From the NCBI GenBank assembly GCA_900323505.1, contig OOIN01000001.1, positions 186,001 through 250,000 of the forward strand: DNA of 64,000 nt, written 5' to 3'. Positions 43,779-46,861 of the stretch are shown piece by piece. This DNA is from Ustilago trichophora. Taxonomy: Eukaryota; Basidiomycota; Ustilaginomycetes; Ustilaginales; Ustilaginaceae. The stretch's first letter is position 1; each line of letters begins with the position of its first letter. The notes beneath the pieces are model-generated. The model made no database searches. It was not told the origin of the DNA and saw only the letters and a program-made list of their open reading frames with translations. The position numbers and the translations under genes were made by a program.

Positions 43779-45225
43779 TTAGGCAGATCGCTCCCAATCC
43801 CCACTCTTACCTCCACTTTTTCGCACAACCATAACATCGCCCATCCGCATCGTCTTCCCAGCTACCGCTTTCACCATATCCCACACGGTCAGGCACGCCA
43901 CTGTGCATCCCGTCAACGCTTCCATCTCAACCCCAGTCTGACCCGCCGTTTTCGCCGTACACTCGACTTGGATCCAACTCTCCCCTCCTTCCCCTTCATC
44001 CACATCTCCATCGCTAATGCTGAGCTTGACATCTACATGCGTGAGCGGGAGCGGGTGGCAGAGGGGGATAAGGTCTGCCGTACGTTTGGCTGCCATGATA
44101 CCGGCCAGTTGGGCAGTGTGCAGTACGGGGCCTTTGCCAGATACGCCACTGTGGGACTCGGTGCTGCGGACGAGCGATGCGGCAGGGGTGGGCAGGTAGA
44201 TGCGACCCACGGCGGTGGCAGAGCGAGAGGTGATGGTTTTGGGAGAGACGTCGACCATGGATGCGCCCCCTGTGGTGGGGTTGATGTGCGAGAGTGTCGT
44301 AGAGTCTTCTTGGATCGAAGAGACCGAGGCTGCGGAAGTGGGAGATTTGAAGAGGTTTGCTACGGCGGCAGCACCAGCAGCGGCAAACGCGGATTCTTCT
44401 GGATCGTCCGAATGGCGCTGCATCTGAATCTGCTGTTGGAGAAGGTCGTCGTTGGCAGCGAACGCCTCACCAACCGTGTGCGAGTCAAGTTGTTGACGGT
44501 AGGGCCGAGGCGGAGTATGCTGTTGAGCACTGAGCCCCATAACCTGATGCTGCGGCTGCATGTGCAAAGGAACAGCAAACTCTGCCGATGCTTCTGGGTT
44601 GTCCACAAATGCGTCCAGAGATGACCATGGACCATCGTCATCCATCATCCCTTGTCCTTCACTCTGCATATACTCTGACCATCTTGCCCCGCTCGCGCCC
44701 GCCATGTCTACACCCCCCATACCACCCATCATCGAAGACATGGACTCCGGTCGCGGTGGCATGTCCGAGAACTTGACCCCAGACAACGGCGCGGTGACCA
44801 CGTTCCTCTGTGACTTGCTGGGGCCTTTGGCGGCGGCTGCACCAGCTTGAGCAAAGATGGCTTCTTCCATCTCTGCGATTGGGTCTTTTCTCTCCCGTGG
44901 CGCTGAAGAAGGAGCAGGTGGAGTGGAGGCAGCAGGATGGTTGAGGTAGACCTGTTTGTACAGCGATTTGTCTTGAAGATTCTCAAACGCTTTATCCAAA
45001 TCGCCCCAAGGATTGTCGTCGTCATCCTCCTCCTCCTCTTCCCTCCTCGACCTGCGCGCTGAGGAATGGAATGCCCTTCGGGGGGCTAGAGATCCTCGAC
45101 TGAAAGCTTGTCTGGAAATGCTGCGCTTCACGAACGCTTCAGAACGCTTTGCCGGACCTACGCAATTTGAAGTGAGGGTGGTGTGATGAAAAGATTGTGA
45201 AGCGTGAGCAAAGTCCGTTACCCAT
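43779..45225 (-). CDS. MoaC/MOCS1B, cyclic pyranopterin monophosphate synthase, with mitochondrial presequence; two exons
   Basis: Second enzyme of molybdenum cofactor synthesis, converting the MoaA product to cyclic pyranopterin monophosphate in mitochondria. Proposed exons on the minus strand: 45225-45222 (ATGG) and 45157-43779, with a 64-nt intron (donor GTAACG, acceptor GCGTAG). The join gives MGPAKRSEAF in the frame of the long exon. The 460-residue protein starts with an Arg/Ser-rich, acid-free presequence ending RRAFHSSARRS, a common fungal mitochondrial pattern. An acidic stretch and about 230 residues of unassigned low-complexity sequence follow. The MoaC domain covers about 296-455: SMVDVSPKTITSRSATA, KGPVLHTAQLAGIMAAKRT, LIPLCHPLPLTHVDV, and TGVEMEALTGCTVACLTVWD with MVKAV. 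The head is much longer than in other MoaC proteins. The gene starts 47 nt after the MoaA stop; the same frame is also open upstream to that stop (see findings). Confidence 0.85.
45158..45221 (-). other. Predicted 64-nt intron in the MoaC gene
   Basis: Minus-strand donor GTAACG directly after ATGG and acceptor TTGCGTAG. Splicing supplies an ATG start directly upstream of a clear mitochondrial presequence. The 64-nt length is not a multiple of three, so retention versus removal changes which upstream start can feed MoaC. Confidence 0.65.
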
Positions 45226-45272
45226 GATTTGTGGAGCAAAAAAAGTGGTGTAGTTGGTGGCAGCTTACGCAG

Positions 45273-46861
45273 TCAACCGCCGATGGTAATCATGGGCCTA
45301 TTGAGCGATCTTGCCAGTTCGGTAGGGTCGCGCATCCCCGCATGTTTTGCGTGCTTGCGACCAACTGCGGCGCCAATGAGTTGTAGCAGCTGCTCGTCGG
45401 TCGCTGGCTCGCCGTTGGAGCCAGTGCTGAGGGATGGAATGGGACCAAAGCCGGTTCTCATCGCATCGCGGAGGCTGACTTCTGCGTTGCCAAAGAGGCA
45501 GACCTGCAACAGAGAGGAGGCGAGTTGGATGGAAAAAGGAGAGATCAGTAAAGAGCAGCGATGGTGAGGGAAGTGAAAGAGGAGTTGGAGAGGGACTTAC
45601 CTTGAGATTACCATCCGCAGTGACGCGGAGCCTGTTGCACGTACCACAAAAGTTGTCCGTCATGCTGTTGGACAAGACGCGTGCGCAAAGGTAAGAGGTC
45701 AGAGTTGGCGCTGTGCATGAAAGGATTGTGTGGGGCGAGGACTGTGAGTCGTACCTTGTGATGAAGCCGACGGTGCCCTGGTGACCGGGCACGCGCCAGT
45801 GCTTCGACGTATCGTTGGGATCGTCGCGGTTGGTGACTCGCTCAAAGGTGGGGAACTCTTTCTGGATCGTCTCTACAAGATCGCGGTAGGGGACGAGCTT
45901 TTGCACCTGCCACTTGTTGCCATCGAAAGGCATGTACTGTACGAGACAAATCATATCGAACGTGTTGTCAGCGTCCGAGCTAGTTCAGGTTTTGGGATAG
46001 GGCTGGACTTACCTCGATGAACCGAATCGTGATGGGCTTATCCTTTGTAAAGCGGACGAAATCAACTACGTCCTTGGTATCATTCAAGCCTTTGATAACG
46101 ACGACGTTGATCTTGACACTTTTCATGCCCAGACCTAGCGCCCTCTCAATGCAATCCATGACTGCTTCGTGCCCTCTCCTCCTCGTCATGAACTCAAACT
46201 TGAACGGATCCAAGGTGTCCAAGCTGACATTGAGATGCGTCAGCCCGTTCTGCACGAGGGTGTCCAGCTTTCTCCTACCCAGTGCTATACCGTTTGTTGT
46301 GATTCCAATCTGTTCCAATCCGTGTTGCTTGAGCGCCGCCAGCGAGGAGACGATCTGGGGCAAATCCGAACGAACCGTAGGTTCTCCACCCGTGAGTCGA
46401 ATCTTGTTCACTCCTTGCGAGACGAAGAGTGAGGCGAGACGCTCAATCTCGGAGGTGGAGAGAAGCTTTGGTGAGGGCGTTAGAGGGACTCCATCCTCAG
46501 GCATGCAGTAGAGACAGCGAAGGTTGCATTTCTCGGTGAGCGAAATGCGCAGGTAGGTGTGCTGCCGCGAATGACGATCGCGCAAAATGTGAGATGGTGG
46601 GTCGATGCGCGAGTCGAGTTCAGAGATCCTTTGACGGACTCGCTGTTGTGTCAGACTGGAGGCCATCGCAATGCTGCTGGAGAGTGGTGGATCGTATGAT
46701 GCAGAGATAGTTTCTGGCGTGAGCGGCTTTGCAGAGAGAGAAGAGCGGGAAAAGTGCCGCAGTTGTGCTGCTGACGAGCTTCTTCGTGCCAATACGGCGA
46801 TCGTACGTTGAGGAATCAGCGATGCCATTGCACTCAGCCTGCTCGGTCCAGCGAGCGACAT
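45273..46861 (-). CDS. MoaA/MOCS1A, GTP 3',8-cyclase (radical SAM), mitochondrial; four exons
   Basis: First enzyme of molybdenum cofactor synthesis: converts GTP to 3',8-cyclo-7,8-dihydro-GTP using AdoMet and two 4Fe-4S clusters. Exons on the minus strand: 46861-46013, 45936-45755, 45664-45601 and 45503-45273; all junctions restore conserved sequence (FIE/YMPFDGNKW, GFIT-S-MTDNFCGTC, DGNLK/VCLFGN). The 441-residue protein begins with an Arg/Ser-rich mitochondrial presequence (MSLAGPSRLSAMAS, RHFSRSS). The radical SAM motif is C112-x3-C116-x2-C119 (KCNLRCLYCM), with RLTGGEPTVR following. The C-terminal cluster motif is C350-x2-C353-x13-C367 (CGTCNRLR). The protein ends RPMITIGG, the essential C-terminal GG pair (440-441), then TGA. 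The frame extends upstream of 46861 without a better start; I chose the ATG giving the presequence. Confidence 0.93.

What the first reader, a model, noticed from the sequence alone, without database searches (positions are those of the whole stretch)
45158..45278. MoaA and MoaC share one frame split by a TGA-CTG stop: candidate readthrough fusion versus spliced separate start
Seen directly: MoaA ends in the functional GG pair and TGA, followed by CTG. The same reading frame then has no stop for about 1.49 kb, through the 12 codons to 45239 and the whole MoaC domain. A second route also exists: an ATG at 45225 (47 nt after the stop), a 4-nt coding exon and a 64-nt intron give MoaC its own mitochondrial presequence. 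Because 64 is not a multiple of three, removing the intron breaks the readthrough frame and keeping it removes the MoaC ATG route, so the two products are mutually exclusive. Established knowledge: human MOCS1 is bicistronic, with splice forms that fuse A and B by bypassing the stop; Aspergillus cnxABC is a fused protein; UGA followed by CU is a leaky context, and Ustilago maydis is reported to use UGA readthrough for a peroxisomal glycolytic enzyme. Inference: this locus may toggle between split and fused Moco enzymes.
Basis: partly seen in the sequence, partly recalled or inferred. Interest (0 to 1): 0.85.

Follow-up and report, generated by a model that had tools for sequence, protein, structure and literature searches.

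The report
Split-or-fused molybdenum cofactor gene in smut
Two enzymes that start molybdenum-cofactor synthesis sit back to back in one smut-fungus gene, separated by a stop codon that overlaps a weak splice site, so RNA splicing rather than ribosomal readthrough most likely decides between the separate first enzyme and a two-enzyme fusion, as in bread mould and humans.

Summary
The anatomy is real. On the minus strand MoaA ends ATC-GGC-GGT-TGA (stop 45275-45273), CTG follows, and the same frame stays open to 43779 through MoaC. The window is Ustilago trichophora; its genome carries a second copy on contig C2, which tests the idea. The unspliced frame is open in both copies, but opposite one-base gaps shift its middle, so that peptide is not conserved. 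Unchanged between copies are the GG codons, TGA, two donors (GTTGAC 45277, GTAAGC 45268) and 32 nt after the stop. Both donors join acceptor 45158 in frame. Splicing at GTTGAC skips the stop and gives exactly the deposited 899-residue fusion P0121. Many fungal fusion models place the junction at a GG codon, and Neurospora nit-7 has a proven retention/fusion switch (PMC7232280). So this is most likely a nit-7/MOCS1-type splicing locus. Against it: GTTGAC is a very weak donor, other smut fusion models disagree on the junction, and no RNA was available. TGA-CTG readthrough remains possible but unproven.

The parts
45273..46861 (-). MoaA (GTP 3',8-cyclase), exons 46861-46013, 45936-45755, 45664-45601, 45503-45273; 441 residues ending ITIGG-stop; N-terminal presequence-like stretch
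   Evidence: Pfam Radical_SAM and Mob_synth_C in P0121
45273..45281 (-). GGC GGT TGA: C-terminal GG codons and stop
   Evidence: identical in C2
45158..45277 (-). Candidate fusion intron, donor G45278^GTTGAC, 120 nt (117 in C2): removes the stop and gives MITIGGPAKRS...
   Evidence: product equals deposited P0121 over 899 residues; very weak donor
45158..45268 (-). Alternative intron, donor GTAAGC, 111 nt (108 in C2): keeps GG-TGA-CTG and leaves MoaC in frame behind the stop
   Evidence: donor in the top 4.4% of GT sites; identical in C2
45158..45225 (-).
   Evidence: C2 reads TCG-AGGCAACG here; donor in the top 11% of GT sites
45241..45309 (-). 69-nt stretch identical in both copies: end of MoaA, stop, both donors and 32 nt after the stop
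45060..45080 (-). RRAFHSS, mitochondrial-processing-type motif between MoaA and MoaC
   Evidence: the reading of the motif is recalled knowledge
45129..45131 (-). GTG where C2 has an in-frame ATG (246867) and P0001 starts MKRS
43779..45157 (-). MoaC exon (linker plus MoaC domain 44258-43809), stop at 43781-43779

Best explanation
A nit-7/MOCS1-type locus: one transcription unit whose MoaA-MoaC spacer is an alternatively spliced intron. If the intron is kept, or cut at the stronger donor GTAAGC (45268), the stop stays and MoaA with a free C-terminal GG is made. If it is cut at G45278^GTTGAC (45277), the stop is removed and an in-frame MoaA-GG-MoaC fusion is made, in which the GG is no longer C-terminal and the A half is presumably inactive. 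The fusion is carried into mitochondria by the MoaA presequence, and MoaC is released by cleavage at an internal presequence-type site (RRAFHSS). Shown here: frames, phases, identity of the key bases in the second copy, exact match to the deposited fusion model. Inferred: one transcript, splice-site use, import and cleavage.
For: Joining G45278 to G45157 gives exactly the deposited 899-residue protein P0121. In C2 both donors, the stop and the phase are kept, the intron is 117 or 108 nt, and the second Gly is rebuilt as GGA. Post-stop bases unusually conserved: 0 of 29 against 96 of 340 in other intron sequence. W has no in-frame ATG between the acceptor and 44870, past the presequence, while MoaC is under purifying selection (dN 0.026, dS 0.379, W against C2), so upstream coding is needed for a mitochondrial MoaC in W. 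Of 130 fused models, 94 hold the NRPMI-x-I motif; 62 of the 73 that continue I-G-x have x from a G-initial codon (G, D, V, A, E), and all 21 that change straight after Ile have D, E, V or A, as a phase-1 donor in a Gly codon would give. 50 of 59 MoaA-only models end in GG. Trichoderma shows both forms: P0302 ends ILIGG, P0208 reads ILI-DPIPP. nit-7: retention gives NIT-7A, splicing 1460-1696 gives NIT-7AB, which is needed; a second variant starts 9 nt downstream at 1469 with the same end, the spacing seen here between 45277 and 45268 (PMC7232280).
Against: No RNA was available. GTTGAC is a very weak donor: 90% of all GT sites score as high or higher, and it lies at the 1.1 percentile of 284 predicted introns in a rough model. 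My gene finder did use donor 45277 in every pass, but with acceptor 45059, not 45158. Deposited models are predictions: P0122 lacks 11 residues with FCGTC that the C2 sequence encodes. Fused models of other smuts and kin place the junction elsewhere (P0007, P0011, P0012, P0014, P0027, P0123-P0125), and several species have separate MoaA and MoaC models. Predictors seeking a way round the stop would favour a GT in a GGT codon, so the pattern is partly expected.
Confidence: 0.58

Rival explanations
1. Programmed readthrough of TGA-CTG: the intron is removed at GTAAGC (or kept), the ribosome sometimes reads the UGA, and translation runs on in frame into MoaC (ITIGG-X-LRPAKRS...).
For: TGA-CTG is the same in both copies. 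GTAAGC splicing leaves MoaC in frame behind the stop in both. UGA-CU is reported as sufficient for efficient readthrough in U. maydis (PMC4207609 section 6). Post-stop conservation fits this too.
Against: The same paper finds CUA after UGA in the natural case and an A at the third position as a further help in HeLa cells; here it is G. The unspliced readthrough peptide is not conserved. No clear RNA structure after the stop (z = -0.51 and 0.93). Only two copies were compared at DNA level.
Confidence: 0.15
2. MoaC is made separately, from its own transcript or start codon: in C2 from ATG 246867 behind a spliced leader, in W from ATG45225 through the 64-nt intron.
For: C2 has an in-frame ATG at the presequence and P0001 starts MKRS. 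Separate MoaC models exist, e.g. Sporisorium graminicola P0003 and Pseudozyma hubeiensis P0006. All 8 named unfused MoaA models of Ustilaginomycotina fetched end in GG. MoaC has its own presequence-type motif.
Against: W has GTG instead of that ATG, and its ATG45225 and donor are absent in C2, so no start is shared. Only 115 nt separate the two coding parts. No promoter or 5'-end test was made.
Confidence: 0.2
3. The W copy no longer makes a mitochondrial MoaC: with the ATG lost, only C2 supplies it and the fused W model is an annotation artefact.
For: W has GTG where C2 and P0001 have ATG, and a second copy exists.
Against: The W frame is intact and MoaC is under purifying selection between the copies, though a recent loss would not show.
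Confidence: 0.06

Closest known systems
Neurospora crassa nit-7 (NIT-7A / NIT-7AB)
   Same: One locus for both domains; GG-stop lies at or in an intron; two splice variants with donors 9 nt apart and a common acceptor, both multiples of three (237 and 228 nt there; 120 and 111 nt here).
   Different: Alternative transcripts, import and release are shown there and only predicted here. In N. crassa the intron encodes the GG; here the donor candidate lies inside the second Gly codon and the fusion keeps GG. The exact position of nit-7's GG relative to 1460 and 1469 was not seen.
Human MOCS1 (MOCS1A / MOCS1AB)
   Same: Bicistronic layout with a stop between A and B; splicing at the end of A bypasses the stop; internal targeting motif before B and proteolytic release (PMC9607355, passages).
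   Different: Exon 9 alternative splicing in a ten-exon gene; not the same splice sites. The primary papers were not held.
Aspergillus nidulans cnxABC
   Same: Fungal single locus for both domains.
   Different: Not examined here.
Ustilago maydis UGA-CU readthrough genes (tpi1, art1, rpe1)
   Same: UGA followed by CU in a smut.
   Different: There readthrough adds a short peroxisomal signal; here it would add a whole enzyme, the context is CTG not CTA, and splicing can do the same job.

Membership tests
nit-7/MOCS1-type A-C locus | MoaA and MoaC domains adjacent on one strand, MoaA ending in GG-stop | tested here: met
nit-7/MOCS1-type A-C locus | A splice that bypasses the stop and fuses A and C in frame | tested here: met
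   As sequence potential and deposited model only; kept in C2
nit-7/MOCS1-type A-C locus | Both transcript forms made in the cell | not testable with these tools
   no RNA data at hand
nit-7/MOCS1-type A-C locus | Fusion imported and B/C domain released | not testable with these tools
   only a processing-type motif in the linker
UGA-CU readthrough genes | UGA followed by CU | tested here: met
   TGA-CTG in both copies
UGA-CU readthrough genes | Extension conserved as protein | tested here: inconclusive
   Unspliced spacer peptide not conserved; after GTAAGC splicing the extension is MoaC itself, which is conserved under either mechanism
UGA-CU readthrough genes | Readthrough product observed | not testable with these tools
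   needs a reporter or proteomics
   TCG-AGGCAACG in C2

The most novel reading that the evidence does not exclude
A short element (GGCGGTTGACTGCGTAAGCTGCC, unchanged between copies) carries three overlapping codes: the catalytic GG, a leaky UGA-CU stop and two competing phase-matched donors. Splicing at either donor, with or without readthrough, then sets the ratio of active MoaA to imported MoaC from one transcription unit, with MoaC freed at an internal presequence site; the W copy depends on fusion for its MoaC while C2 could also use its own start.
Probability: 0.12. Interest if true: 0.65.

Novelty: new member of a known kind. Interest (0 to 1): 0.42.

Why it matters
It extends, as a sequence-based prediction, a splicing switch known from Neurospora and humans to smut fungi, and may explain why smut gene models of this locus disagree. 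It yields two testable points that I did not see in the papers read here: in many fungal models the fusion junction falls at a GG codon, and the A-C linker carries a mitochondrial-processing-type motif in 62 of 122 of them, which would explain how MoaC is cut free after import. If readthrough proved to be the route instead, it would be a whole enzyme made by UGA-CU leakiness.

Tried and rejected
Rejected: the 64-nt intron plus ATG45225 as a conserved route; the unspliced open frame as evidence of coding. Not significant: RNA structure near the stop; a 23-nt hairpin over GG, stop and donors has an energy reached by 1.4% of 23-nt windows, but by 7.9% of its shuffles, and the 69-nt context folds differently. 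Led nowhere: conservation-based intron finding returned mostly intervals inside exons; the first gene-finder pass (175 introns) was noisy, and its trained version (284 predicted introns) is good only for ranking donors. Papers: the searches (cnxABC with basidiomycete; molybdenum cofactor with Ustilago and readthrough) found 0; searches listed no paper whose title concerns this locus in smuts. Not used: scans of viral, metagenome and prokaryote contigs, structure prediction.

The processing motif was chosen after looking at the linkers, and the models are related to each other, so its excess over shuffles is descriptive. The G-initial-codon counts have the same limits.

Full report
What is there. 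The minus strand holds MoaA (46861-45273, four exons, 441 residues) and, after 115 nt, MoaC (exon 45157-43779). MoaA ends ITIGG-TGA; the same frame is open from CTG45272 to 43779. Pfam finds Radical_SAM, Mob_synth_C and MoaC, each over its cut-off, in the joined protein P0121.

Where it is. P0121 is named Ustilago trichophora and lies on a contig of 2,679,685 bases, the length of G000:C1; it is identical to the product of joining G45278 to G45157. The MoaC family search finds two matches in the genome, C1 and C2; the C2 copy corresponds to the deposited P0122, on a contig of 2,685,375 bases.

The second copy as a test. Identical: the last codons of MoaA, GGC GGT TGA CTG C, GTAAGC and the bases after it. 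The spacer differs by gaps of three, one and one, net three, so the unspliced frame is open in both copies (497 codons in W, 504 in C2), but its middle is read in different frames. That looks like an intron, not a conserved coding extension. In 45272-45241, 0 of 29 aligned bases differ, against 96 of 340 in the other intron sequence of the gene (Fisher P = 1e-4) and 27 of 95 in the first 32 nt of the three MoaA introns (P = 3e-4). dN and dS between copies are 0.030 and 0.339 for MoaA, 0.089 and 0.462 for the linker, 0.137 and 0.300 for its first 50 codons, and 0.026 and 0.379 for the MoaC domain.

Three donors, one acceptor. GTTGAC 45277 (120 nt; 117 in C2) removes the stop and fuses in frame; the second Gly is rebuilt (GGT in W, GGA in C2). 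GTAAGC 45268 (111 nt; 108 in C2) keeps the stop and leaves MoaC in frame behind it. In a rough self-trained model GTAAGC is in the top 4.4% of all GT sites, GTAACG in the top 11%, and 90% of GT sites score as high as GTTGAC or higher. The same model, in every pass, placed an intron from 45277 to 45059, that is with the fusion donor but another acceptor. A donor inside the last Gly codon before a stop must read GTTGA, GTTAA or GTTAG, so weakness is built in; that this keeps the intron partly unspliced is inference.

Other fungi. The 314 proteins are the listed hits of three searches (at most 120 rows each). A looser pattern of them fused; a stricter one fused and 59 MoaA-only. Of the 59, 50 end in GG. 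Of the 130, 94 hold the NRPMI-x-I motif: 73 continue I-G-x, where x is G 48, D 7, V 4, S 4, H 3, N 3, A 2, K 1, E 1 (62 of 73 from G-initial codons; 14 of 25 without Gly, against 12% in the following residues); 21 change straight after Ile, to D, E, V or A in all 21. This fits a phase-1 donor in the second or first Gly codon; a plain GG-retaining fusion without any intron would also count among the 48. Models are predictions and predictors seeking a way round the stop would favour such a GT, so this is support, not proof. Against: 36 of 130 lack the motif, among them P0007, P0011, P0012, P0014, P0027 and P0123-P0125 from smuts and their kin, whose junctions disagree. P0122 lacks 11 residues with FCGTC that the C2 DNA encodes, so deposited models contain errors. 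The 8 named unfused MoaA models of Ustilaginomycotina fetched (P0217, P0219, P0220, P0222, P0223, P0224, P0227, P0240) all end in GG; the grouping of these genera is recalled.

Start codon of MoaC. C2 has ATG at 246867 (M-KRS), P0001 also starts MKRS, W has GTG. P0001 is closer to C2 (92.1%) than to W (88.0%), so which state is older is open. In W the next in-frame ATG is 44870, past the presequence.

Internal presequence. In 62 of 122 fused linkers (8 of 130 skipped) the motif R-x-[FYLWI]-[SHT]-[ST] occurs, against 7.55 on average and 17 at most in 200 shuffles; 43 of 79 MoaC-only models have it. That such motifs mark mitochondrial processing is recalled. It fits release of MoaC from a fusion, and equally import of a separate MoaC.

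Known systems. PMC7232280 (introduction, results, discussion and passages): unspliced nit-7 gives NIT-7A with an intron-encoded GG; delta 1460-1696 gives NIT-7AB, and a strain unable to make it does not grow significantly on nitrate; delta 1469-1696 exists and is not essential; NIT-7B alone was not mitochondrial; it is released from NIT-7AB after import; unspliced mRNA rises under nitrate. PMC9607355 (passages): MOCS1AB by splicing at exon 9, internal targeting motif, cleavage at position 432. PMC4207609 (passages and section 6): UGA-CU readthrough in U. maydis.

Verdict.

Noticed in passing
whole window against C2:195001-275000 (L004-L011): The genome is 38.8 Mb in 45 contigs and 54.7 of 64 kb of the window aligns collinearly to C2 at 88.4% identity, while other U. 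trichophora assemblies are 20.7 Mb (PMC4966473 abstract in a listing; PMC8951962 passage): it looks like a hybrid or unreduced diploid.
   Followed up: partly
L003 (C2 copy), deposited model P0122: P0122 lacks 11 residues including FCGTC of MoaA that the C2 DNA encodes; P0011, P0012 and P0123 show the same VGFIT-RLR gap, so these models seem to carry the same prediction error.
   Followed up: partly
45129-45131: W has GTG where C2 has ATG and the metagenome protein P0001 starts with Met, in the MoaC presequence: a start-codon difference between the two copies.
   Followed up: partly
45259-45281: The GG-stop-donor stretch can form a 7-bp hairpin (-8.4 kcal/mol), not significant against shuffles.
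   Followed up: yes
protein P0017: A MoaC listed as Cichorium endivia is 56% identical to this smut MoaC over 90% of the query and carries the smut-like presequence; probably a smut contaminant in a chicory assembly.
   Followed up: no
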